Assembly (NCBI GenBank): GCA_950295325.1
Contig: OX485803.1
Location: 12,958,001 to 13,022,000 of the forward strand
DNA: 64,000 bases
Origin: Polytrichum commune
Taxonomy: Eukaryota; Streptophyta; Polytrichopsida; Polytrichales; Polytrichaceae
Reading direction: 5' to 3'
Both the position numbers and the translations under genes were made by a program. Of the stretch, positions 7,151 to 39,149 are shown one piece after another (the first letter of the stretch is position 1; each line of letters begins with the position of its first letter). The notes under the pieces were generated by a model. It was not told where the DNA came from. It ran no database searches and saw only the letters and a list, made by a program, of their open reading frames with translations.

Positions 7151-7486
7151 CACTAAATAGGATATTCAATGTTTGATACACTAAATACGAACACATACAC
7201 TAAATATCAGTAAGCTTTTGACAGTAAGTAACATGAAATGTAAACTCAAGCACTAAATATCAACTATAGTAATATGTGAAAGTTGCATGTCTGAATTCAA
7301 ATTTAGTAAGGATATGAAGAAAGAAAGAAAAAGGATATAAGAAGGTAGGTGGCAGTAGGGGAAGGTAGCGGCACATTTACGTCTAACACTAATTGTCAAA
7401 GAATTGAAAATTAGTGTTGAGCAGGGTAGGGTGGTAACATCACTAAGTATTATCAAACACTGAATATCCTATTTAGTGTATTAAAG
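7151..7486. mobile_element. CACTAAATA-type MITE, copy S3
   Basis: Left TACACTAAATAGGATATTCA..TGTTTGATA and right TATCAAACACTGAATATCCTATTTAGTGTA are inverted copies about 330 bases apart. No coding capacity. Confidence 0.75.
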
Positions 7487-20239: not shown

Positions 20240-20731
20240 CAGGGTTGTCTATTGTGTCGTGACGGAGGGTAATCCCGGCATAATGTCGTGCCGTCACGAC
20301 ACGTATCCGTCACGACATTATGCCGGATGCTGTCTTTATCTTGACGGACTTGAATTTTACCGATTTTTTTGTGTAATTACATTAACCCAATTCGGACACG
20401 TAGGATTTACAATGTCCACGTGTGATGACATGTCAGCAAAGTAAAGGTAAAGTGGGGAAAAATTTACTAGAGCCCGTCCGCCCCCCCGTCCGCTCCAGTT
20501 TTTTTTTTTTTTTTTTTTTTCCCCCCCCCCCCCCTTCCCCGTCCGCCCCATTTTATAAAAAAAAATTCCCCCCCCTCCGTCCGCCCCATTTTATAAAAAA
20601 AAATTCCCCCCCCTCCGTCCGCTCCCGTTCCCCCCCGTCCGCCCCCGTTCCCGACCCCGTCCGCTCCGTTCCCAACCCCGTACGCCCCGTTCCCCCCCGT
20701 CCGCCCCTCCGTCCGCTCCCCCGTCCGCCCC

Positions 20732-20762
<31 letters not shown>

Positions 20763-20868
20763 CTTCCCCCCCCTTCCCCGTCCGCCCCCGTTCCCGACCC
20801 CGTCCGCTCCGTTCCCAACCCCGTACGCCCCGTTCCCAACCCCGTACGCCCCGTTCCCCCCCGTCGGC

Positions 20869-20904
<36 letters not shown>

Positions 20905-22085
20905 CTTCCCCCCCCTTCCCCGTCCGCCCCATTTTTTTTAAAAACAAAATTTCCCCCCCCCTCCGTCCGCTCCCGTCCGCCCCCGTTCCCGACCCCGTCC
21001 GCTCCGTTCCCAACCCCGTACGCCCCGTTCCCCCCCCCGTCCGCCCCAGTTTTTTTTTTTTTTTCCCCCCCCCCCCCTTCCCCGTCCGCCCCATTTTTAA
21101 AATAAAAAAATTTTCCCCCCCCTCCGTCCGCTCCCGTTCCCCCCCCGTCCGCCCCCGTTCCCGACCCCGTCCGCCCCCGTTCCCAACCCCGTCCGCCCCT
21201 GTTCCCAACCCCGTCCGCTCCGTTCCCAACCCCGTACGCCCCGTTCCCCTCCGTCCGCTCCCCCGTCCGCCCCAGTTTTTTTTCCCCCCCCCCCCCCTTC
21301 CCCGTCCGCCCCATTTTTTTTTAAAAAAAATTTCCCCCCCCTCCGTCCGCCCCCGTTCCCAACCCCGTCCGCTCCGTTCCCAACCCCGTTCCCCTCCGTC
21401 CGCTCCCCCGTCCGCCCCAGTTTTTTTTTTTCCCCCCCCCCCTTCCCCGTCCGCCCCATTTTTTTTTTTAAAAAAATTCCCCCCCCCTCCGTCCGCCCCC
21501 GTTCCCCCCCCGTCCGCTCCGTTCCCCCCTCCGTCCGCTCCCGTTCCCCCCCGTCCGCCCCCGTTCCCCCCCCGTCCGCTCCGTTCCCCCCCCCGTCCGC
21601 TCCCGTTCCCCCCGTCCGCTCCGTTCCCCCACCCGTCCGCTCCCGTTCCCCCCGTCCGCCCCCGTTCCCCCCGTCCGCCCCCGTTCCCGACCCCGTCCGC
21701 TCCCGTTCCCCCCCGTCCGCTCCCGTTCCCAACCCCGTCCGCTCCGTTCCCGCCCCCGTTCCCGACCCCGTCCGCTCCGTTTCCCCCCCCCACCCCCGTC
21801 CGCCCCACACCCTCCTTAGTCGTTTTTTACTACTTTGATTTTAACAAAATGGTAAACAAAATGGCAAAATGATTTACCTGGCGCTAGGCATATCCACGAC
21901 CACGTCGGCGTTTTCTGCCACATAGGACGCCACCTTGGCAAGAAGGTAAGTATTTTACCCACCCTAGTCCGTTCCCCCTATGTTGACCCTACGTGGACCC
22001 TATTGTGTCGTGACGGAGGGGTCCGTCACGACACGACACGACATGACGGCACGACACCGTCATGACGTCGCGATAGACAACCCTG
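20240..22085. mobile_element. hAT-like non-autonomous element (1846 bp) with 8-bp target duplication
   Basis: Terminal inverted repeats CAGGGTTGTCTAT / ATAGACAACCCTG-type at 20240 and 22085 are flanked by CTTTGTTG at 20232-20239 and again at 22086-22093. An 8-bp duplication and CAGGG termini are typical of hAT. Behind each end are subterminal arrays of CGTGACGG/CCGTCACG words; at the left they fold into a perfect 16-bp hairpin (20275-20290 with 20311-20326). The interior is the C-rich minisatellite plus about 200 bases of ordinary sequence. No transposase is encoded, so it would need one in trans. The clean duplication suggests a fairly recent insertion. Confidence 0.8.
20462..21810. repeat. 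C-rich/poly-T compound minisatellite inside the hAT-like element
   Basis: Short words such as CCCCGTCCGCCCC, CGTTCCCGACCCCGTCCGCTC and CGTTCCCAACCCCGTACGCC alternate. About five times they are separated by a spacer made of a T run (8 to over 25), a C run, TTCCCCGTCCGCCCCA, then a T/A tract and another C run, giving higher-order units of roughly 130-240 bases. The minus strand has dense runs of four or more G and could form G-quadruplexes. Large Pro-rich (+) and Gly-rich (-) open frames exist only because the words lack stops. Homopolymer lengths may be inexact. Confidence 0.9.
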
Positions 22086-23840: not shown

Positions 23841-25410
23841 AAAATGTCCGAATTAGGCATACCCTCCTAATGTGTTAATTGCAGGAGCAAAGTCCTATAT
23901 GCAGAACATGAAAGATGAATAGAAGGGATGAAAAAAAACAAACTGCAAGCTATTATTACCAAGTGGGGTGTTCTAAGCCATTTAAATATTCAAGGAAGCA
24001 AGTTCTCGGCAACAATGCATCATTCAAAGAGACAGTCGTGACCAATTCTCTTTTGAAATTCGAGGAAGGCTTCACAATGGAAATCTTCATGGCAAGAAGT
24101 CTAGACTCTGGCACTGGTTGAAGCTTAAGAGCTAGCTTGTGCTATATATATATATATAGCTTAGGAATTAGAACCCAGATTGAATCAGTTTTAAGAAGTC
24201 TTGAGCGGACGACAATATCCCATCCTCATTACACACTTGTTCTTGTAGAGGAGGCACTAATCTTGTATATTTGTATGACAAAGACTCTTGTTTATGAGAA
24301 AGTTTTGATGTGGTCATATTTGATCAATACTTAATGCTGTTGGCATCAAGGACTACCATTATTGGGAGCTGAGTCCAACTCGAGAGAGGAAAAAGGATGA
24401 CCACAGATGTTACACTACTATGGCCCCATTAATAATTGTGTCGTGGCATGGGCCTACATATATAACATGTCCAATGCCAACCCCATTGCAGAGTCAAATA
24501 TTTGAACAAGTCTATTAATTTGTTTGTCTTTTATGCATGTTTCTTCACTCACGCTCACTTTCCACTTGAGCTTTCGGCTTGGCACCTTGAACGTTGTACT
24601 GGGGCTTACAATGGATAGCTCTCAACTCAAGCTCTAAGGTAGATGAGGCTAATGTGGACAACTTCAAGTCTTTGGAATGATCTGGCTAATGGATTCAAGC
24701 ATTTGGAGCTTGAGTAGGTTAGCAATTGTGAATCAAGACCAAAGAATTTGAAATCGGAGTTGAGGAAGGTGTTGATCTAGGTTTTGGAATCGAAGGTTCT
24801 CTGCTTCCCAATCCGGTCTTATAAGGGGGGACTCTTTTATCGTTCAACTTTGTGTAAGTGGATGACATCATTAGCGGATTGTACATGGGTCATTTGCCAA
24901 TGAAAACCAAGTTTTATGCCAATATTTGTTGCGTCATGTCTCTAAAGCAATCACCTGTAAGATAAAATGTTGCCGAGTTGGTTTTTCATTATATAATACC
25001 CACTATACAAGTTGGTCGGAACCTCACAACCACATGTCGCCTACTAATTTGCCCACCTCACACATAAATATCAAGCATGTCATAGTCTGGTGGATAGCAC
25101 TCCTAATTATGGAGGATGGTGGGTGTAGTTTGATTTTTTGCAAAGGTGACTAAGGGTGAGTTTCCATATAGGCCACTCGCCCACTAGATTCTAGATAATA
25201 GTGGGTCGGAAGTGTTCGCATGTAGTTAAGCACAACTCGCCATCCAGCCACATCCTAGCAGCCTACTAGAATGTGAAGGGTTGTGGACACATGCCGCTAA
25301 ACTTTCATACGCCCACTAAAGAATCTAATGTAAAGTGTGCCTAAATATTGTAGCAAGTTGCCTACTTGTGAGTCATTTCCTCCTCTCATTACATGATATA
25401 TATATATATA
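23841..25410. other. Gene-free spacer left of the PLE locus
   Basis: Contains (TA)n tracts near 24143 and 25390. No recognised gene or repeat end. Confidence 0.5.
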
Positions 25411-26345
25411 ACGAGAGAGCTCGGCATTTCTTGAATAAATCTATGCTTACATTCAAGCATAGGCCCTTCTTAGTACATCCTCTTGCTTAGAGGCCAAACC
25501 ATTCCTCTACATATCTATGTACCTTTCTTCTTGGCCATATCATTGCAAATTTATGACTAAACTTTTATTACTAACTCTACTTGGTATGTATCTAAACTTA
25601 TTTAAACCTTTGAGTATTCAAACTACTAAGGTTGTACCCATTGTACCCTCAAACAAAATATGGCATTCCATATCCAATACTTATCAAGTCAAGTTCAATG
25701 GAATTTGTACCACTCATTCATAATGTACTTCACAAGGTTCATGCACAACTTAGAAATGCTTTGTATCTCACTACATTTTCAAGCATTCTACAGACAATAT
25801 TTTTGCACAAAAATAATATACAAAACCTAAGATAGCCGTCCAAGTGTTGAAGGGTCTACCTCACATGTGCCCATGCCACCAACCAAGTTTTAAAAGAGGG
25901 TTAGCAACATACACGAGGTGAATAACAACAAAACCCAATTGTTATTTATGTCACACAAATGACAACATCGTAATCATACATTTTGTATCATAGAATACCT
26001 AAACATACATCAAGTATTTTACATGTTCCTTAGCCATTTGAACTTTCGGTGATCACACACTGAGGCAAGTAGCATACACCTTCCACAAGTCCGCACTTAT
26101 TTACTTACACTAAACCTAGAAGTTACTTAAGGTGAACTCCATATGCGGCTTAACCTTTGAAAGGAGGTTCTCATGCCTCCTCTTACTTAATATAGGATTA
26201 GGTATATGTTCTCATTTGTAGATGCTTAAAATAATATCTACGGCGGATATCTATTAGGTAACGCTTTCCTAACCCTAAAGTGCTTAGCTCTTTGGGGTTA
26301 TATTTTATTACGTATTCAATTTATTTATGGCAAGGTAATAACAAA
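25411..26345 (-). repeat. Short pseudo-LTR-like unit B, left copy
   Basis: About 0.94 kb between GA boxes. It shares with the copy at 34190-35320 a small hairpin-like CCTCTTG/TTCAGAGGCCAAA block near its left end, the structured motif in the middle, and an ATGG(C/T)AAGG(T/C)A..AACAA block just before the right GA box. It is diverged from that copy, so not the product of one recent insertion. Confidence 0.55.
25852..25956 (-). ncRNA. Structured RNA-like motif, copy 1
   Basis: On the plus strand GGGT..ACCC form an outer stem, ACCTC/GAGGT an inner stem, and the conserved core is TGTGCCCATGC plus GTTAG..ATACA. A GTTATTTATGTCACAC tail follows. It lacks the CAG/GTGAGG step of the other copies (CACATGTGAGG on the minus strand). 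No hammerhead core was found. Function unknown. Confidence 0.45.
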
Positions 26346-26349
26346 GTAT

Positions 26350-28709
26350 GAGAGAGAGCTGACCAATCTTGTCAAGATTATTCTCTAGTTAGAATAAGAT
26401 AAGTTAAGTTAAGTTATCCTTCTGGTAGAGTTATGTCATGTAGACTTTAAAGACAACATACATCCCTGTTCGAATGGGGTCTTGATACTCAAATGGTCTT
26501 TACTTATACATGTTCTCTTTTTGTCAGTCCTGTACAGATAGGCAAGCCTTCTGTTCCCATTACGCAAACCTTCTTTAAAAGAGTATCCAATTACTGAAGT
26601 CAGTATTCGCTTCTTGTTTATCCGTAATCTCGGTTATACTTCACCCTACACGTTTGAGGGCGCTGAGTAGCGACTAGTCCAGAATAATCATCCTTCTCAA
26701 GACAGAGTATGGGTAACATCATCTGCCCCCATTAGTTGGGTGTGTTACCTCTTTGTGTAATTCAACCATACATCTTATAATCGCTGTATGAACTGAATCA
26801 GTGTTCTTATCAACTCTATTTCGACTATCTTTCCACGTTTCATGAAACATGTACTGAGTACGAGAGTAATTATAATTGTTCAACAATTCTCTTATCTATG
26901 AACAGAATCAGAGACCCATCCGGTGCACAGAGCTATACAGTTTCCTTTTCTGCACCTTTCTAAAGAACCAAGCTCTCACCAGGTTATTCCCAGTGCTTCA
27001 TAGTATGGTTCCGAATCTTATTATTGAGAGGGAATTATATTCTAACTAGGCCCCAAACCGATACCAAGTATGAGTATCTTCTCACCTTAGGCTTCAGTCA
27101 CATATTACTGAAGCACATCACTCAAGTAGGTCCGTGGACGGACTTACGGTTAGATCCATAAGAGCTGTTTCCATTCCTCACTCAGCCCATTTGGTCCATG
27201 CTATTACCAAAGTCAAAAACTCTGTAGGTGTATAGAATAAACAACCCATGTTGTAATTCCCCCAGTACTATAGTTGTATCATATCTTATGAAAGCATTGT
27301 TCATATGGAATCAACATATCCGACCATCATAGTTCGGTGAACTCCACAGGTTAACGACATATAAAATAAGTATGAGTGTAGTCATATTTTCTCACCATAA
27401 CTCTCATATGAATCATGTTTAAAGAGAAAACAGATTCATGGATAAGTGGGAATTCCTTTTTTACTTCAGTAAATCCCATGGCCACCAATTTATTTCTGCT
27501 GTTCATCGCATAGAACAGAATCGTTATATTTTGAGTGGGTCTTTATTTTGTTTAGTCAGCAAACCTTTCAGTACCTTCACAAGGATGCTGTAGTAACACA
27601 CACTGAAGCAATTCTCTCAAATGGTCCATATGGACAGCCTGCGGTTGTGTACCATAGGAACTATATTTTCTCCTCTTGACTTACTACGTAGTGTTACTGC
27701 AACTACAGGAGGGACCATCTCTGTAGTTATATAGCTTTACAGCTTTATTATGTTGACATTCCGCAGTATTTGTCATTCTATACTGGTAGCAGATATCAAG
27801 CTGGAAACAAAACAGACTCAATCTGCCTTATTCCAATGATCAGAGCAAGATCTTATTACCCGTCTATTATAGCAGGAAAAATATGTAGAGAGTATATATT
27901 GTTTTTCAATCAAGAAAGCTAAAACTCATGGTCAATAGTTCAAATTTCAATGAGAAATTTCTTGTAAAATAGCCATGAGTTGGACAATTCTTCGGAAGGT
28001 GCTCGGCACTTGTAGAAGAGGTCCTCACCTGTGCCCATGCTCCCCAACATCAAAAAATAAGTTAGTAGAGCGTACAACAGGTGTCAACGGACCTTCTTAC
28101 TTGTTATCGATGTCAACAAGTCAATACATCTTCCTTGGAACTTTATACAATACTCAATATCATCTACATATATTTGCATATATTGAAACTGTTCTTGAAA
28201 CCGGAATTGGGTGAAATCAGACAGTGGCTGGATTTTCCCTGTATTCCCATTCATTCTTCAAGTGTCATCTGTGTAAGTTGTGCAACTTCTTTTTAGAAAA
28301 ACACCTTGAATTCACTGTCGGTTGAGCTCTTCTTGCTCATTTTGATGCACTTTGTTCGTATTCGAACTGGAATGAACCCTGCCTTCAGAGCGGATAAGAT
28401 CACTTAACAGTCACTCAGTCTACACGAATACTGCAGTAAGACTGTCTCCGTTTGTATACAGATCGACTGTTCTCAAAACCTTCAAGGCTTTCACGCTCAT
28501 CTCGCAGTCTATCTTACTACATGTATCGGCTGAGTGCTGAGGAACTTTCTTGAGCACCTAACGTCAGGGCCGGACTACTCACGTCGAAGGTGACTCTGTA
28601 TGGACAGGCTTCCCCGCGTATATTGGTTTATATAATGATGTATTCTGTCTAATTTTCGGGCAGCCCGTAAGGAATTTTACAGAGCCCGTACTTGCAGAAT
28701 TTCAAGAAA
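26350..28709 (-). repeat. Long pseudo-LTR-like unit A, first copy
   Basis: About 2.36 kb. It starts (plus strand) with CTGACCAATCTTGTC and a block around ACAACATACA(T/G)CCCTGTT, and ends with GGGCAGCCCGTAAGG..GCCCGT..AATTTCAAGAA before the GA box. The same marks occur at matching positions in the next copy. The middle is strongly diverged and holds short hairpins such as GGTCCGTGGACGG (27128) and GGTCCATATGGAC (27623). Confidence 0.6.
28020..28118 (-). ncRNA. Structured RNA-like motif, copy 2
   Basis: Nested pairing: GGTCC (28020-28024) with GGACC (28089-28093), CACCTGT (28026-28032) with ACAGGTG (28077-28083), and GCTC (28039-28042) with GAGC (28068-28071). GTTATCGATGTCAAC follows. Nearly identical to copy 3. 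Confidence 0.55.
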
Positions 28710-31065
28710 TAGAGAGAGCTGACTTAATCTTGTCTTGATTAAAGTTATGTTACAATAGGTTATGTCAAACCTCTGTAGAGTCAGGTTAAGTAAGGTAGTA
28801 GACAACATACAGCCCTGTTGGAATAGGGTCTTGATAATATCATCATGGTATAGAATTCATCAATTCTTTCATATGTATCCCTTGTTCAAGTAGATGCCTG
28901 AACTGTTTATCTGAGTGTTCATCACCACATTTTAGTCATGTATAATATAGGTATGTCTGCGGTAATCAAACCCTGTCGTTAACGACCAGCTTCTTCTTAC
29001 CCACTGGATAGCTCCTTTAGCTGTTTATTCTTTCAGCCTTATACAATCAATACCAAAGTGGTCCTGATCGGAATATTCACACACCTAAGTGTTGTTTTAC
29101 TATCCTGGAATGTTAATCTCAACGGGTTGTATAGAGTTATCCAAAAAGGAGCCCTGTTGTGTTCCGTTGTAAAGAAGTTACACGACGCCTTAGTTCTTCT
29201 GAGTCTCAAGTTTTCTACGAGGTTTAAAGAGACTTTGTATGGAGCATCCTACGACATGCCGACACAGGGAACAGTCAACGAAGTTCGCTCAAATTGTCAT
29301 AAGCCATTTCTAAACAAGATTTGCATAAGAATCTATCCCGATAGATCTTTGTATTCCTGAAGTATGACCAGGAACCAATAAGGGTGGTGAGCCTTCACCC
29401 AATCTCTTTACGGTATTCAGTGGTTATCCTCAGATGGTTATCTGTGAATCATTCCTGCGGTTTATTTTGCTCATAAGTGGAAGAATGGTTAGAGAATCTC
29501 TGCAGCTCTTTGCATGATTCGTACTTATAAAGCAGGGAATCCTTCGTCATTAATTTCTTATATGCAAAGGTAGAACATATCACAGCAAACGGTTCATAAA
29601 TGTTTCCTAAGAACACCCAAAGTGTCTCTTATATTGCAAACCGTATGGATCTGTTAAACAGATCTTTGTAAGTATTTCTCCTAACATATTCCCTGTCATG
29701 TTCATTTTTCATATCAGAAGGTCAGGAGTATAAACTTCTGATTATGCATTTCGTAAGACCCTTTTCTCAGAAAAGTTTATTGCGACTATACGCAATGGGA
29801 GAATTCCCTATATTGTCTTATTTCAGAGACGATTCCCTCATATATTCTTCACGTGTTTTTCTCAAAGACTGTAGAGACAGAACTATTCCTGTACACCTTT
29901 ATACAGTAATGTGTATTAGTCATCTCTCGAAGAATCAGTAGAATGGATTTCAAAAAAATCAAGAACCGTGTCTCTATTGAGACTCACAACTGATTCACTC
30001 TCAATTGGTTAGTAACAGAAATCAATACTCATGATCTTATTATCCACATCATTCTCGTCTCTCTGACTTATGTTTAGATCATAAAGATAGTCAGAACCAC
30101 TGCATCTTGTGCCATACAGTATATCTTGATGGTTCAGTCATATCCTCGAATTAGTAGAGTAGTATAACTGGAAATTTCCTGCTGTATGCGGGTAAAAACA
30201 TCTGTTCTTATTACCTGGCTATTTTTTATCAATTGACAGATGCAGGTAATACCCATTTTTATAGAGTATGTAAAATATACTTGTCAAGTAAGAAAGTACT
30301 CATGATCAATTTTCTAAGTTTCAAATTGCTAGAAAAATTGTGATGAGTGGACAGTTTCTTCGCAAGGTGCACAGCACTTGTAGAAGAGGTCCTCACCTGT
30401 GCCCATGCTCCCCACAATTACCATAGAGTAAGTTAGTAGAGCGTACAACAGGTGTCAACGGACCTCTTACTTGTTATCGATGTCAACAAAGCCATATCAC
30501 CTTACTTGGAAGTAGGTAGTATATCATATATTTGAAATGACAAATTCTTGAATGGTATGCAATCTTGAATCAAGAATTGGAAGTATATATTTTTTCCAGA
30601 ATAATAATCCCATATACTCTTATTTCATCCCAAGTGTAGTCAGTGTGCTGAAGCAATTCCTGGACCCACACCTTGAAATCATCCTGCAGAGAACTAGTTT
30701 TGTTCATCCTGTCAGCTTACTGGGATCAAAGAACAGTGTAGATAGTGGCGATACAAGTATGTATCTGTACTGAGGTGGTACTAGGCATAAAGGTCTTATG
30801 CTCCTTTCTGTAGCTACCTCCCGTCGCCTCTTCACTCATAGATGAGGCTCTCTGTACTCTACCTATATCGCTCCGAGGAGACTACTCAGCAAGTAACTCT
30901 CAGGAACAGCTATCTACAGGAGTAACTTCGCACGCTTGAGGCAAGACAGACAGGGATACTGTTTAGTTTGCCTTCACAGTTTTATACTGTATTTTTTATT
31001 TTTAGACGGGCAGCCTGTAAGCTCTTTTTTTGTGGGGCTCGTTGTTTCTAGAATTCAAGAAGTAG
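28710..31065 (-). repeat. Long pseudo-LTR-like unit A, second copy
   Basis: About 2.36 kb, head-to-tail with the first A copy. Shared ends are CTGACTTAATCTTGTCTTG and GGGCAGCCTGTAAGC..GGGGCTCG..AATTCAAGAAG. Similarity is clear at both ends and around the structured motif and weak between, so the duplication is old or the middle evolves fast. Its right end abuts the truncated RT frame directly. Confidence 0.6.
30388..30488 (-). ncRNA. Structured RNA-like motif, copy 3
   Basis: Same three nested stems as copy 2: GGTCC 30388-30392 with GGACC 30460-30464, CACCTGT 30394-30400 with ACAGGTG 30448-30454, GCTC 30407-30410 with GAGC 30439-30442. The loop differs in sequence and length from copy 2 while all stems are kept. 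Confidence 0.55.
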
Positions 31066-31123
31066 AGAGAGAGAGAGACCCCTTCGCCTGCATAACAATC
31101 ACTACAAGCAACTATCCACATGT
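31064..31123 (-). repeat. Exact 60-base direct repeat, copy at the truncated RT end
   Basis: Identical base for base to 35324-35383. It comprises a GA run, CCCCTTCGCCTGCATAAC and on to CCACATGT, and contains the last readable codons of ORF2 on the minus strand (HMWIVACSDCYAGEG). Beyond it both sides differ. Confidence 0.9.
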
Positions 31124-32348
31124 GTTTGTTTCTCATATTAGACATATCTAGACGTGTAATGAATTCCATTGCATCATATAGGGTGTTATTACCCGATATA
31201 GGAATGGATTCAAAACATCGTGTGATGTCAGCAACATATATGTTGTTGATCACGTCAGGGGTATTGAGGGTAAAATCAGTTATTGAATCATTTATCCAAT
31301 AAATTGATGTTTCCACCCCAAGAAAATTTTTGTATCCTTTGATAGTGGTGTTTGCCCATTCCTTAACCTCTTCAAGCAATGCCATGGTTGAAAGAGTGAG
31401 GAGAGTGGCTATGTTAACATAGATTGACCCAAAAGCATTGGAAATCCATCGATATTTTTTCTTATGGAATTTGTATATTGCCATGATGTAGGGTAGTTCA
31501 ATCTCACCTATAGGCAATTCAGGTATAAGACTAGTCAACTCCGTCTTGATTTTGGTTGTAACGACATCGATGGAATCTCATATTCCATTGTGTTGACAAG
31601 GTTCAAAATCCGGGCCATTAAGTCTAAGTAATGCTTGGTGTCTTATATGGAAGATGCATATGAAGCAAGCATTACTAGCGGCTTTGTCTAGACCAGAAAT
31701 GAACATGTGCCTTAATAACCATGCAAGTTCATTATCAACAGTCTTGTCAGAGAAGATGTGTGGTTTGGAGTACCTAAAGCCATAAAGATTTTTCTTCATG
31801 GCTGATATTAGCTTGTCCCTTGATATTGTCCGAACAAGCTTGGATGCGCTTTCCACATCCAAACATCCCTCCACCTTGAGTAGTTGACATACCTGTACAA
31901 AAGTATTTACTACCACTTGTATAACCTCCTGTATGTTAGTATTTCTTAATGGTATGTGATTTAATCCTAATGTGATTGCTTCTCTAAGTCCATGATGATG
32001 GATTATCCTTGTGTCCATAGTGCGTACATGCGCCCTTGGATCCTGGGGATTATCATTCATGGTATCATGGTCTACAAATTGTGCCAGTCTCTTAGACTTA
32101 GTGCACATGCAATCATATGAGCCCGTCATGAGTAATTCAACACTGAAATCTTTGAATACCAAAGCCGGTTTATAGCAAAATTTGGATACATTTGGTGAAA
32201 AGTTCCAGGCGAACATGATGTTAAGTAGTAATGGTATAAAATGTGGTATAGAAAAATGGCTAAACACCTCGGAGAATATCCTTTTCATATTCACCCACTC
32301 CAGTGCTCTGCTACAATAGTGCACATGTATAATGTCTGTCTTATCCAT
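31066..32348 (-). pseudogene. PLE ORF2: N-terminal PLE domain and start of reverse transcriptase, truncated
   Basis: The ATG at 32348 opens a frame of 256 codons ending at a TGA (31580-31578). The same frame then continues open to the pseudo-LTR, so one stop splits the gene. The first part carries HGLREAITLGLNHIPLR and SGLDKAASNACFICI, which fit the N-terminal domain typical of Penelope-like RTs (DKG-type motif). After the stop come KYRWISNAFGS, FLGVETSIYWINDS and VADITRCFESIPI; the last is the palm motif A with its catalytic Asp. Coding stops soon after: motifs B-E (including the YxDD-type box) and the GIY-YIG domain are missing because a pseudo-LTR unit begins at about 31065. It cannot make active RT. 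Family assignment rests on recalled motifs. Confidence 0.72.
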
Positions 32349-32503
32349 GCTTTTGTTACGGGATACAAACTTTCGTCCAAATATGTTACGGCGCAGTATG
32401 CGACCATGATCTGCGATTTACAAAACACTATGAGAATAAAGCTGTTAGCATGAATCTAATAGCTTGTTATTAATACCTCACTAAATCCAGCTCTGCTAAG
32501 GTA

Positions 32504-34111
32504 TCAGATGTCTTCCCATAGAAGAACTCGCCCTTTCAACGGTGAGTGTCTGGCACCAGCTGGCATCTGCTCGGCACCTGTTGCTCCCACTGTGCTCGGC
32601 GAAGTGCCCTCGGCGACCTCGCGATGTGTGTGAGAGCGACCACTGCCATGACCTCTGAATCCCCTGCCGCTGCCTCGGGGGATGAATCCTCGACCGTCCG
32701 GTGATCTGCCTCGTCCTCCTTGCCTTCCATGCTCTGATGGGGGCGTGTTGAGGTTTAGGCGTTGTTTTTTGAAAGGTGATGGAGCTTGACTGGGAGATCC
32801 AGGGTGCATGAGTGAGAACTTTGGACCCTTCAATAATCTCTCAATCTTGGTGGCTAACGGAGCATCCTGGAGATTAGGTAGCAATTTCTGAGTAGGGTTC
32901 TCAGAGAGTTGCGTTGCTGCTTCAATCATATGTTCCCTCCCAATGTTGAATACTATTGCCGCTTTCACCGCGATCTTGGCAGCACTACTCAGCCATAGCA
33001 TAAAAGCTGCGAATCTGGTATTGCTATTGGGTTGGTTTGGAAAGAACATCTCTAGTTTGTTAATCATTGCCCATATGGCATGATCGAACCAGATTATGGA
33101 ACCCTTGCACCCAGAGGTAGCTCGTGGGTTGCACAAGCATCTCATATATGGGCGCTGAACATTCCAGAGTTCAGCTAGGTGAGACTCTTTCCTGTTGTAC
33201 CCTGTAGGTAGATCATGTTTTGTATGTAACTTCACCTCCGTGGTTGTACATTTGGAATGCTCAAACATGTTGAGCGAGAATGCAGGTATCAGATCTACAG
33301 GTGCTCTCAAGACGCCCACATTGTTTAGCGCTTGTTTCTTACAGTGTTCCAGTTCACTTTCCGAAATCCCAGCCCATGTCTTCCACATGGGGATCGTGAT
33401 AGGTGCAAGCAAGTTGGTGTTGCCAACTGCCCACATTCTATGCTGATGGTCTGCAACCACGAGCTCTACACACCTCGGTGGCTTAACAAGTACAACCGGT
33501 CCCTTTGTGAAGACCAGAGTCTACTTATCTTTTTCCGTCTGTGAAGAGCTTAGGGTTTCGGTGAAGTCTTCCAGGGTAGATCTTTCTGCCGATGAAATCT
33601 TCATCTTCGCAAGTAACGGATGTGTGTTGCTTGCAGTTGCCGCAGCTTCATTGGTCTCCAGACACGGTTCGGTGATAGACCGGTTTGAAGTATTCTCCAG
33701 GGCGTCGTTGTTAGCTAACTTCAAGGCTTCTTCAATCATGGAGCAGACTCCGATGGATCGAGTGGCCTCCTGTTCGTCCTGTAGCAGTAAATCACCTAAC
33801 TTGGCTTGGGCAGATTTGATATGGGCCAGGGTCTTCGCTGGGTCAGTGGTGGCAGTTACGAAGAGCGACGTCCATAGTGACAAATCTAGGGAATCGATGA
33901 GAAGGGGCTGGTGCACACCTTCATCGTCACAGTCGGCGAGGGCTGCTGTATCGCTTTCTTGGATGAATTGGTGTAGTTCAGGTAGATCGATTGCTGAGAG
34001 AGTCGTTTGCACAGCAGGAATTGGTGCAGGTAGCGGTGGGCCGTACCCCATGGCTAGCAATTCCCCATTCCAAGCTGGTCCCTTGTTGTTGCTCTGTAAT
34101 GTTAGATTCAT
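32504..34111 (-). pseudogene. PLE ORF1: unknown protein with RGG-rich tail, one in-frame stop
   Basis: A single frame of about 535 codons starts at the ATG at 34111 and is broken only by a TAG at 33523-33521 (about codon 197); the frame stays open for 20 codons on each side and then to 32504. The first third is acidic with no motif I recognise. The middle has LWNVQRPYMRCLCNP followed by SGCKGSIIWFDHAIWAMINKLEMFF-like hydrophobic helices, shown here only in part. The last about 80 residues contain RGG/GRG repeats (GGRGRSPDGRG, GSGRGFRGHGSGR), typical of RNA-binding tails. It lies just upstream of the RT frame in the same orientation, so it is probably the element's first protein, with a nucleic-acid-binding role inferred. 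No homologue is recalled. Confidence 0.6.
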
Positions 34112-34189
34112 AACATATGCAACTTGTGTTTAGAAGAATGTGAAGGATCAGGTAGTGGGTTCCACGCCACTAAAGGATAATTCAGAGAG

Positions 34190-35323
34190 AGCTGACTTTT
34201 CAAAACTTTCACAAAGTTTGAACTTCCTCTTTTCAGAGGCCAAATCCTTCAAGTTCTTCTTCACTGTAATGCAAGGGTGGGTGGGTGGGAATGTTTACAA
34301 GACTCTTTCTAAGTCACTTACCTTGCCCTATTTCACCATTACATAATGCTTTGCATAAGAGAGTCCTTTGCAGTCATATATTGATGGGTGTATTGTATCA
34401 CCTAAGTATTCTATGCCATATCCTAACTTGCCTTGCAATGATGAGTGCCTCATTTACATGCTTTGTGAACAAATGGTTTTCATTACCCATTTGTATGGTT
34501 TCACTTATCCCATGCTTTGGAGTCTAATCCCCAACCTTCATGTTTTAATGCAAAAATGTATCTATCTTGTCCACTACATGTATGAGGTACTTACAAAGAG
34601 AAAATAATCCTATTAGCCTCAACCAATGGAAATGCATAAAATGTCATAATCACAAAACATTACTGCATTGAACGTGTGAAGGGCCTGCCTCACCTGTGCC
34701 CATGCAACCAACCAACAAAAAATGAGGATTAGTTACGTACACGAGGTAAATAACAGCAGGACCCAGTTGTTATCCATGTCGCACACTTAGACTCCATTTC
34801 AAAAACATCAAAGTATTTCAAGAAAGTTACACTCATTGTCAAGCCACATATGAGTGTTCAAACCTGTTCTTTTGCCATGATGGGGTAACTCCAAGTAGAA
34901 TACTCTTCTTGGTGGTGACTCCTACTCCTTCACGCTTAGCACTTAACTAATACCCTAATTCACACTAAGTTGGCCGCACCTTCCACTACCGTGAATAGTA
35001 GAAAAGAGGCTCCGTTTTAGGGTTAAGGGTTTATATTGGAGTTCTTACCTATGGTAAGTTCTCTCAACCCTAATTTTGGCTTTAGGTTTGAGACGTGGGC
35101 CCGTCTGTCACTAAGCTCGTGTCATATTTTTCATCCATTCCTCCATAGTGTTTGCTTCATGGTAAGTACAAATTCTTGCCATGTGCTTGGGTCTTAGTAT
35201 TTTTTGGCTTATTGGTCATTTATGCTATTAGCAAATACCTTTGCCACGTGCTCATTTATAAAGGTAGTTTATGAATTTCAGAAAATTGCATGGTAAGGCA
35301 TTAAACAAGAGCTAGAAAGAGGG
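34190..35323 (-). repeat. Short pseudo-LTR-like unit B, right copy
   Basis: About 1.13 kb upstream of ORF1 in the coding orientation, hence in the position of promoter and 5' UTR. It holds the structured motif (34681-34765) and ends in a (GA)n box followed by an exact 60-base repeat of the ORF2 end. Confidence 0.6.
34681..34786 (-). ncRNA. Structured RNA-like motif, copy 4
   Basis: GGGCC with GGACCC, GCCTC with GAGGT, and an inner stem that on the transcribed strand is GUAAC/GUUGC in place of GCUC/GAGC of copies 2-3, a compensatory change. The core TGTGCCCATGC and GTACA are kept. It lies about 570 bases upstream of the ORF1 start. Confidence 0.5.
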
Positions 35324-35383
35324 AGAGAGAGAGAGAGACCCCTTCGCCTGCATAACAATCACTACAAGCAACTATCCACATGT
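35324..35383 (-). repeat. Exact 60-base direct repeat, copy outside the right pseudo-LTR unit
   Basis: Second copy of the 31064-31123 sequence. It is either the remnant of an upstream tandem internal region with the same RT truncation point, or one half of a long target-site duplication. Confidence 0.9.
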
Positions 35384-37720: not shown

Positions 37721-38304
37721 TGGACTATGGGAGATTGGAGTGGCAACGGACTCTCCATGACTTGGAAAACGCTCCGGATGTTGCCTATGAGGATATTCTT
37801 AACGAATTTGACTCAATATGGTGTGTTAAAGATCTTATTATTACTCATTGCAATTTGTCGGTAACTTGAAAGGTTAGATCCCAAGTGGGCATTATTTTGA
37901 TAGGCCCCTTAGTTATGTGTTGGTTCACCCAAGGTGACATGCATTTTTCCTTTGCAATTGAATTTGTCTTCAATTTGTGCCAACAAAAAAGAAGAGAAAG
38001 GATAAGATTTTGCATTGGACTGAACTGGTACATTCAAGACTCTATAAGTGTTACCCCTATAAGCAATATAATTTCATATATGCTAAGAAATTTTACTCCC
38101 CTACAAAAACATAATTGGTAAGATTAGTGAGTGTTATGTGTTAAGTGTTATAACATGCTCTACTCCCTTCTTTATTAATTGCACCTCTATATGTGTTAAT
38201 TTTGAGAAAATCAAGGTAATAATATATGAGAGCGTACATTTTAAACATGTAATCACATTTATCCCATATTCTTTGCAAACAAGTCAAATATTCTCTCTTA
38301 TTTA

Positions 38305-38803
38305 GGGGCGGTTTACACTATGGACCAAGAGCCATGACCAAGAAAATTAAATCATTTTCATGGTCATAGCTCTTGGCCAAGAGCCGTGACCATGAAAAAT
38401 CAAAAATGGAATTTTGAGTGGCTTGGTCACTCTTGTAGTGTAAAGTGGATTTGGACCGGGACAACTTTGGGCTGAATTTTTTAATATAAATACAGTAACG
38501 TCAAAAAATTCGGGAAAAAAAATATTTAAAAAAATTTCGGCCAATGGCTGATTTTCAGCCTTACGGCTCCCTTGATTTCCGTTGAGTCGAGCATTTTGCC
38601 TCGCCCCAACGGAAAACCTGTTGGACCATGGCACATTATCCAAATGGCAAATTTTAGTAGTTTTTGGGGACCTCAAAGTTAGTGGTCATTCTCCTTTTTT
38701 CAAGGTAGTGTAAAGCCAAATGGGACCAAGAGCACTTTACTCTCCAATCACAGATTTTAGAATTTCATGGTCATGGCTCTTGGTCCATAGTGTAAACCGC
38801 CCC
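38305..38803. mobile_element. Harbinger-type MITE, copy H4 of a related subfamily (499 bp)
   Basis: Ends GGGGCGGTTTACACTATGG and CCATAGTGTAAACCGCCCC with TTA on both sides (38302-38304, 38804-38806). The subterminal CAAGAGCCATGACCA is also found in H1-H3, so the subfamilies share ends. The almost unchanged ends suggest a younger insertion. Confidence 0.85.
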
Positions 38804-39149
38804 TTAGAGATCCTTCCTCCTTGTGCACTTTCAAGCAATTTGGGTGAGGAGATGGCAGACATAGAAGGTTTGGGAGTTGGGATGCTTGTTGTGTGCTAGT
38901 TTGCTAGTTGGGGCTTACAATCTTGATATAGCATCTTTCAGGTTCAACAATCAGATGGGCGTAGGTAATGTATGGACCTTTTTTTGTTGTCTTTCTTTTC
39001 TTTCTTTCTTTTCAAAAAATTACAAGCATATTTTTAGTCAACGTGTGTAGAGATCAATCAAGGGTATGGAGCCTGATTTTTATTTGATTTTTATTCTTTT
39101 TTCCCCAAAAAATTGCAATTTTTGTAATTGTAAGTGGCCTTCACATCTA

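What the first reader, a model, noticed from the sequence alone, without database searches (positions are those of the whole stretch)
25852..34786. Four-copy, covarying RNA-like fold in a plant Penelope-type element
Seen: four copies (25852, 28020, 30388, 34681) keep nested complementary segments while loops drift. The inner stem changes from GCUC/GAGC (copies 2-3) to GUAAC/GUUGC (copy 4) and the outer from GGUCC/GGACC to GGGUCC/GGCCC; cores AUGGGCACA and GU(A/G)UAC are invariant or nearly so. Known: PLE pseudo-LTRs often encode hammerhead ribozymes. I see no CUGANGA..GAAA core here, so this could be another ribozyme class or a packaging/priming structure. Its placement in every unit argues for a role in the element's cycle.
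Basis: partly seen in the sequence, partly recalled or inferred. Interest (0 to 1): 0.75.

Follow-up and report, generated by a model that had tools for sequence, protein, structure and literature searches.

The report
Conserved RNA hairpin in plant retroelements
A roughly 95-letter RNA hairpin sits in the repeated ends of reverse-transcriptase mobile elements in this plant genome, has kept its shape while its stem sequences changed, and matches no catalogued RNA, so it is probably a handle or processing signal the element needs in order to copy itself.

Summary
Four copies lie at 25849-25941, 28013-28103, 30383-30473 and 34678-34769, on the MINUS strand, which also carries the element's ORFs. 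The motif is a ~93-nt hairpin of three stacked helices with a conserved internal loop (UAC/AUGGG). Its core occurs 995 times genome-wide against 2 for the reversed control. It lies upstream of the reverse transcriptase in 10 of 11 loci read. Between the two main element clades it is the best match in 29 of 30 comparisons of DNA around the motif. Across fold types 15 of 25 pairs change on both sides (alignment fitted to the model), but tree-aware tests within one type are not significant. The hosts look like endonuclease-lacking, Penelope-like retroelements inserted at (TC)n and ending GTCAGCTCTC. Rfam has no match and the hammerhead core is absent. None of 21 close copies ends at the fold, which argues against a linear fold-cleaved template. 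Best explanation: a cis-acting RNA recognised by the element's own proteins. A new self-cleaving ribozyme remains possible and untested.

The parts
34678..34769 (-). fold copy 4 (type 1): P1, 5' bulge, P2, internal loop UAC/AUGGG, P3
   Evidence: covariance model match 110 bits, E 1.4e-25 (this copy was in the model's training set); MFE fold z -2.77 on the minus strand
34767..34780 (-). conserved block GACAUGGAUAACAA just 5' of fold copy 4
   Evidence: read; conserved in alignments A3 and A4 of types 1 and 2; absent in L027
30383..30473 (-). fold copy 3 (type 2)
   Evidence: E 7e-5 with a model made from type 1 only; z -3.38
28013..28103 (-). fold copy 2 (type 2)
   Evidence: E 1.2e-7 with the type-1 model; z -3.70
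25849..25941 (-). fold copy 1 (type 1)
   Evidence: 105 bits, E 2.8e-24 (in the training set); z only -1.24
34187..35338 (-). unit 4 pseudo-LTR, from the (TC)n start to its 3' end GTCAGCTCTC (34187-34196)
   Evidence: same two boundaries (-633 to about +520 around the motif) in stand-alone copies L013, L016, L017; L018 starts at -616
32504..34129 (-). ORF1 (RGG-rich, gag-like guess) of unit 4, with one in-frame stop
   Evidence: ORFs 33521-34129 and 32504-33520; open 529-aa counterpart at L021:1721-3307
31079..32417 (-). N-terminal part of ORF2 of unit 4, one in-frame stop, cut off before the RT motifs IPMG and YIDD
   Evidence: the open frame runs on to 31002; full open ORF2 of 725 aa elsewhere; motifs in L021
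28713..31075 (-). unit 3, no element ORF seen, type-2 fold, 3' end GTCAGCTCTC at 28714-28723
26353..28720 (-). unit 2, no element ORF seen, type-2 fold, 3' end GTCAGCTCTC at 26354-26363; alignable with unit 3 around the fold (236 nt, 81%) and at the 3' end (136 nt, 71%)
   Evidence: with looser scoring the fold match grows to 339 nt, 74%
25400..26360 (-). unit 1, partial, type-1 fold
31079..31123 (-). 45-bp stretch repeated at 35339-35383; each copy ends where a (TC)n run starts the next unit

Best explanation
The fold is a cis-acting RNA recognition element of an endonuclease-lacking, Penelope-like retroelement. Proposed cycle: read-through RNA of a unit is made from the strand that carries ORF1 and ORF2; the element's own proteins (RT and/or the RGG-rich ORF1 product) bind the hairpin through its conserved internal loop and neighbouring block and so select this RNA, from autonomous and non-autonomous copies alike; the 3'-terminal CUCUC of the RNA pairs with a free GA-rich 3' end at a (GA/TC)n tract; RT copies the RNA from there, leaving a unit flanked by (TC)n. 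Shown: the fold, its strand, its conservation, its place in each unit, the (TC)n junctions and the recurring 3' end. Inferred: protein binding, RNA selection and priming by the CUCUC end.
For: Around the motif (-650 to +1000) the fold is the best match in 29 of 30 type-1 x type-2 comparisons (E from 2e-11 to 0.022); with the fold masked, two of the 30 pairs keep a match below E 0.02 (E 0.003 close to the fold; E 2e-20 in the tail of a neighbouring unit). Against unit 4 it is 83-94% identical in L022-L024, L026 and L027 while coding DNA is 70-72% and the rest of the pLTR does not align at E 1e-8. It lies upstream of RT in 10 of 11 loci read (L019, L021-L028, L030 yes; L029 no). It stays conserved in units 2 and 3, which lack element ORFs and whose other sequence has mostly diverged, which speaks for a role in cis for mobilisation and not for translation. 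Fold type goes with RT clade: RT 52-72% identical to the window's in the 7 type-1 loci, 38-40% in the 3 type-2 loci. 995 genomic copies of the core motif against 2 for the control. GUCAGCUCUC ends and (TC)n junctions. In a rotifer Penelope family the authors infer that cis-acting pLTR sequences sufficed for integration in trans (PMC3846280, passages); in an Anolis PLE the authors hypothesise a protein-binding motif in the template RNA (PMC11167929, passages).
Against: No binding data of any kind. A ribozyme would be conserved in cis in the same way. One RT locus (L029) shows no fold in the 4.5 kb read upstream. In the Anolis PLE the inferred binding motif is in the first 172 nt of the ORF and the full pLTR was not required for insertion in vitro, so by analogy a pLTR fold need not be the binding site; here the fold lies 0.5 to 1.7 kb upstream of the 3' end. 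A fold that tracks RT clade is also expected from plain common descent.
Confidence: 0.5

Rival explanations
1. A new class of self-cleaving ribozyme that takes the place of the hammerhead in these elements and cuts tandem or read-through RNA into units, perhaps followed by circularisation.
For: Hammerheads sit in pLTRs of other PLEs (PMC11167929) and next to the target-complementary 3' repeats of rotifer Terminons (PMC12477314). The motif is compact, once per unit, on the sense strand, with a conserved unpaired core. A circular template would explain why copies do not end at the fold.
Against: No Rfam ribozyme family matches. All 21 copies of a close subfamily carry the DNA on both sides of the fold; 0 of 21 end there, and 28 of 34 fold records (some overlapping) show a (TC)n or GTCAGCTCTC junction 488-823 nt upstream, so a linear fold-cleaved RNA is not what was copied. 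The core is one hairpin with no pseudoknot or multi-way junction that I could see.
Confidence: 0.22
2. A 5'-UTR element that controls translation, stability or export of the ORF1/ORF2 mRNA.
For: In full elements it lies upstream of ORF1.
Against: It is kept in units 2 and 3, which lack element ORFs and whose other sequence has mostly diverged, and in stand-alone pLTRs.
Confidence: 0.1
3. A DNA element (promoter or factor site) conserved for its sequence, with incidental complementarity.
For: Long conserved stretches such as CATGGGCACANGTGAGG. Copies 2 and 3 fold well on either strand.
Against: Compensatory change between types; strand asymmetry, 98 G.U against 21 A.C in the sense reading; fold energies favour the sense strand in type 1.
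Confidence: 0.07
4. A conserved spliceosomal mini-intron of about 70 nt.
For: PLE pLTRs can hold introns (PMC11722881, passage). Most type-2 copies have GTAAGA, UACUAAC and CACAG at suitable spacing.
Against: Type-2 copies L077, L101 and L103 lack the GT but keep the outer stem; type 1 has no consensus 5' splice site; CACAT copies lack the AG. No copy with the joined flanks at up to 2 mismatches, one junction tried per type.
Confidence: 0.04
5. A degenerate or variant hammerhead.
For: Position in the pLTR only.
Against: 0 of 122 motif records contain CUGANGA; in 13 element sequences, both strands, 13 core-spaced CUGANGA...GAAA matches lie elsewhere and only one has even a 3-bp stem II (L028). 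No Rfam hammerhead match. The genome-wide search with RF00163 found nothing but its controls did not ring, so it is uninformative.
Confidence: 0.02

Closest known systems
Hammerhead ribozyme of Penelope-like pLTRs (Rfam RF00163 and relatives)
   Same: cis-acting RNA, once per unit, in the pLTR, on the sense strand
   Different: no CUGANGA...GAAA core and no Rfam match; three stacked helices with a UAC/AUGGG internal loop; genomic copies examined do not end at it
Terminon/Athena and related endonuclease-deficient PLEs
   Same: RT without endonuclease domain; RNA 3' end complementary to a repetitive target
   Different: target here is (GA/TC)n, not telomeric repeats; the fold is not a hammerhead and lies 0.5-1.7 kb from the 3' end (the Athena features come from a passage of PMC12477314, and from recall)
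Template recognition in an Anolis PLE (PMC11167929)
   Same: element protein thought to bind a motif in its own RNA; internal RT start in a stem loop
   Different: that element has an endonuclease and a hammerhead, its proposed motif is in the ORF and its full pLTR was dispensable in vitro; no homology was tested
R2 retrotransposon protein-binding RNA motifs (recalled)
   Same: structured cis RNA bound by RT
   Different: no sequence or structural relation tested

Membership tests
Penelope-like element (host of the fold) | reverse transcriptase ORF | tested here: met
   L021 ORF2 weak RVT_1 match, E 2.3e-4, below Pfam's cut-off; weak group II RT match, E 1.3e-4, far below cut-off; IPMGFSCSPLWCN and YIDD motifs; L019 ORF2 44% identical
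Penelope-like element (host of the fold) | long direct terminal repeats around the ORFs, tandem and solo copies | tested here: met
   repeats of at least 1055 bp, identical, in L021 and at least 1651 bp, 99.9%, in L019; stand-alone units L013, L016-L018
Penelope-like element (host of the fold) | RT falls in the PLE/telomerase clade of a tree | not testable with these tools
   no reference PLE proteins held; PDB profile search found no RT
Penelope-like element (host of the fold) | GIY-YIG endonuclease (canonical PLEs only) | tested here: not met
   no match in Pfam at E 0.1; ORF2 ends about 170 aa after YIDD. So not a canonical EN+ PLE; the endonuclease-deficient kind is what fits
Hammerhead ribozyme | CUGANGA...GAAA catalytic core | tested here: not met
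   0 of 122 motif records
Any Rfam 15 family | match at or near gathering score | tested here: not met
   0 at gathering in the window; none at the folds at E up to 5 or up to 10 in seven element loci, where 22 weak matches lie elsewhere, all below gathering
Self-cleaving ribozyme (any class) | site-specific self-cleavage | not testable with these tools
   needs RNA biochemistry
Spliceosomal intron | GT and AG ends kept in all copies; spliced copies or reads | tested here: not met
   no reads available
Structured RNA | compensatory base changes in excess of phylogeny | tested here: inconclusive
   strong between types on a model-fitted alignment; not significant within type 1 or type 2 with tree-aware nulls

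The most novel reading that the evidence does not exclude
An undescribed self-cleaving ribozyme class that has replaced the hammerhead in an endonuclease-lacking plant Penelope lineage, making unit-length (perhaps circular) RNA that RT copies by annealing its CUCUC end to GA-rich DNA ends, much as telomerase uses its RNA.
Probability: 0.18. Interest if true: 0.88.

Novelty: new variant of a known kind. Interest (0 to 1): 0.6.

Why it matters
How PLE proteins pick their own RNA, and what the pLTR ribozyme is for, are open questions. Here is a compact RNA, present about a thousand times in one genome, with several sequence types that can be tested side by side. Either answer is useful: a new ribozyme class, or a conserved recognition RNA for an endonuclease-lacking PLE, a group allied to telomerase.

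Tried and rejected
Plus-strand reading: rejected for type 1 on energy and overall on G.U/A.C asymmetry; copies 2 and 3 alone fold as well or better on the plus strand (copy 3 again). Hammerhead and other Rfam families: no match; a genome-wide RF00163 search is uninformative because its controls did not ring. Tree-aware covariation inside type 1 (55 rows) and type 2 (20 rows): no helix pair passes; the best P1 pair has p about 0.0125 uncorrected. L033 and L044 were left out of both sets: a third fold type and a copy with a degenerate 5' side. Alignment A6 used 34 of the 55 type-1 rows, leaving out near-duplicates and some length variants and divergent copies (L047, L052, L057, L060 among them), so its 95.2% paired is on the high side; those four are in A7. 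A7 took 34 chosen sources and held one chance row, window 7361-7453: with it 16 of 25 pairs change on both sides, without it 15 of 25 in 35 rows; the shuffle and slide controls were run with it. Most fold sequences were chosen by an exact match to CATGGGCACANGTGAGG, so invariance of that stretch is partly built in; helices P1 and P3 lie mostly outside it. One P2 position (CACANGTG) is G, T or A with no change opposite, and P1 pair 12-87 is unpaired in 13 of 34 rows: results against a perfect helix. The single-sequence fold of L033 was made on a stretch cut short of the 5' strand of P1 and gave another structure. MAFFT misaligned types 1 and 2, so the cross-type count rests on an alignment fitted to the type-1 model. 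A pairing AUAACA/UGUUAU in type 1 was considered and dropped by eye: no compensation. Mini-intron: rejected. Motif hits in bacterial/archaeal and viral contigs (12 and 2) are chance: no fold. No eukaryotic genome other than this one could be searched. PLE-clade membership of the RT could not be tested against reference proteins. Literature searches (listings, plus passages of PMC11167929, PMC3846280, PMC12477314, PMC11722881) showed no paper describing this fold; only open-licence PMC papers are held, and Cervera 2014 (PMC4209133) and Arkhipova 2017 (PMC5850863) could not be read.
Full report
What was checked. The four copies are present at the stated places. A covariance model built from 34 type-1 sequences (window copies 1 and 4 are among them) finds all four in the window, on the minus strand, with E 1.4e-25, 2.8e-24, 1.2e-7 and 7e-5; the next match (7361-7453, E 0.28) is not convincing. 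The last two of the four are type 2, which the model had not seen. In 14 unrelated contigs that hold the core motif by chance the best match has E 7.3.

Strand and shape. Minus-strand folds beat dinucleotide shuffles in three of four copies (z -3.70, -3.38, -2.77; copy 1 only -1.24). On the plus strand copies 1 and 4 show nothing (-0.34, +0.44), but copies 2 and 3 have z -4.49 and -5.02, better than on the minus strand. With other stretches the minus/sense signal is uneven: copy 4 z -2.52, L022 -3.08, L074 -2.68, but copy 3 -1.07 (plus strand -2.84), L027 -0.88, L045 -1.16, and L033 -0.93 on a stretch cut short of P1. The strand call therefore rests on type 1, on the ORFs, and on 98 G.U pairs against 21 A.C mismatches in 839 cells of the sense reading. 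The shape is a hairpin of about 93 nt: outer helix P1, a 5-7 nt bulge on the 5' side, P2, an internal loop with UAC (32-33 of 36 rows per base) opposite AUGGG (35-36 of 36, partly built in by how copies were found), and P3 of up to 10 pairs with a drifting terminal loop. A block GACAUNGAUAACAA lies just upstream in types 1 and 2, but not in L027.

What it sits in. The minus-strand ORFs of unit 4 are ORF1 and the N-terminal part of ORF2, each with an in-frame stop; ORF2 is cut off before the motifs IPMG and YIDD. Elsewhere ORF2 is an open 725-aa frame with those motifs and no endonuclease domain found. Complete elements have direct repeats of at least 1055 bp (L021) or 1651 bp (L019) around ORF1 and ORF2. 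Stand-alone repeat units run from about -633 to +520 around the motif. Many units start at (TC)n or directly at the GTCAGCTCTC end of an older unit: 28 of 34 fold records (some from overlapping loci) show such a junction 488-823 nt upstream; the six without are L006, L008, L015, one each in L020 and L025, and L027. Where the 3' end was in reach and recognised it reads GTCAGCTCTC, or GTCAACTCTC in L021; it was not recognised in L022, L024 and L026. These are the marks of Penelope-like elements without endonuclease. That RT belongs to the PLE clade is a reading from motifs and anatomy; I could not test it with a tree. The plant's identity is unknown to me.

How common and how conserved. The pattern CATGGGCACANGTGAGG with up to one mismatch occurs 995 times, the reversed control 2 times. 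A looser two-part pattern occurs 358 times, its control 0. The fold is upstream of RT in 10 of 11 loci whose upstream DNA I read (L019, L021-L028, L030; not L029). Against unit 4, elements L022, L023, L024, L026 and L027 align in the pLTR, at E 1e-8, only around the fold (-80 to +30; 93-94%, L027 83%), while coding DNA aligns at 70-72%. Closer relatives (L021, one copy in L025) align over much of the pLTR, and a more sensitive search aligns more of it within type 1. Of 30 type-1 x type-2 comparisons (-650 to +1000) the fold is the best match in 29, with E from 2e-11 to 0.022; in the other the best match is the tail of a neighbouring unit. With the fold masked, two of the 30 pairs keep a match below E 0.02 (that tail, E 2e-20, and one at E 0.003 close to the fold). 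The 10-nt 3' end is shared too but too short for this test. Units 2 and 3, without element ORFs, share the fold region (236 nt, 81%; 339 nt, 74% with looser scoring) and the 3' end (136 nt, 71%). This is the strongest argument for a function in cis in mobilisation.

Covariation. Within type 1 (34 of 55 rows), 95.2% of cells pair, against 33-49% for slid structures; four pairs change on both sides. Across types (36 distinct rows, alignment fitted to the model, one chance row included) 89.4% pair against 73.3% in shuffles; 16 of 25 pairs change on both sides (shuffles 12.8 on average, 1 of 500 as high); covariation score 0.435 against 0.187 (sd 0.011) in shuffles and at most 0.140 in slid versions. 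Without the chance row: 89.5%, 15 of 25. Clear cases by eye: P3 GCUC/GAGC becomes GUUC/GAAC in L074 and L088; P1 GGGU(Y)CUGC/GCAG(R)CCC in type 1, AAGAGGUCC/GGACCUCUU in copy 3, and GGUUuCAU/AUGAACC in L033. Against: tree-aware scans inside type 1 and type 2 alone give no significant helix pair, because there are few independent events. One P2 position is unpaired in many copies and P1 pair 12-87 fails in 13 of 34 rows. So the structure rests on agreement between types more than on statistics inside one.

Mechanism. 21 close relatives of unit 4 (unit 4 included) were found by the fold, by the DNA just downstream and by the DNA just upstream; the three sets are the same 21 places, so none ends at the fold. 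Each call scored 40 of its 658, 265 and 349 candidates; the other 19 in each list are less similar copies that I did not trace. A linear RNA cut at the fold was therefore not the template of these copies; a circular one is not excluded. In the Anolis PLE, hammerhead mutants did not affect insertion in vitro, the full pLTR was not required, and the authors place a protein-binding motif in the first 172 nt of the ORF (PMC11167929, passages): support for recognition of own RNA, but not for a pLTR site. In Terminons, target-complementary repeats at the RNA 3' end lie next to a hammerhead (PMC12477314, passage). Here the target-complementary end (GUCAGCUCUC) and the fold are separate, 0.5-1.7 kb apart. 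I favour recognition of the RNA by the element's own proteins (0.5), with a new ribozyme as main rival (0.22).

Known or new. No Rfam 15 family matches, and the paper searches listed in Tried and rejected showed no description of it. The kind (a cis RNA in a pLTR) is known; this one is not a hammerhead and is not catalogued: a new variant of a known kind.

Noticed in passing
window 25400-35338: Serial insertions: Penelope-like units start at a (TC)n tract or at the GTCAGCTCTC end of another unit, so older units seem to serve as targets for younger ones.
   Followed up: partly
window 31079-31123 and 35339-35383: A 45-bp piece of the ORF2 coding sequence occurs at both ends of unit 4, each time directly before a (TC)n tract; why both end at the same base is unexplained.
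   Followed up: no
L007, L028, L030 and window 28713-28800: Four of the five type-2 3' ends seen carry a hairpin whose loop (UGACAU) repeats the GACAU of the conserved block beside the fold, which could mean one protein reads both; unit 2 lacks it.
   Followed up: no
L096 (C2:17039599-17039815): A very divergent fold copy that keeps the core motif with other stems; possibly a fourth type.
   Followed up: partly
L020: An element with two identical repeats of at least 1.3 kb (5158-bp period) and no ORF over 124 aa.
   Followed up: no
window 20539-21803: GC-rich tandem array of CCCCGTCCGCC-type units with long T runs.
   Followed up: no
window 38304-38345 and 38763-38804: 42-nt inverted repeats 417 nt apart (98% complementary), like a small inverted-repeat transposon.
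   Followed up: no
L021:3372-5546: ORF2 residues 90-182 gave an odd E 1.4e-5 match to PDB chains named GAPDH, not seen with L019 or with the profile; probably chance.
   Followed up: partly
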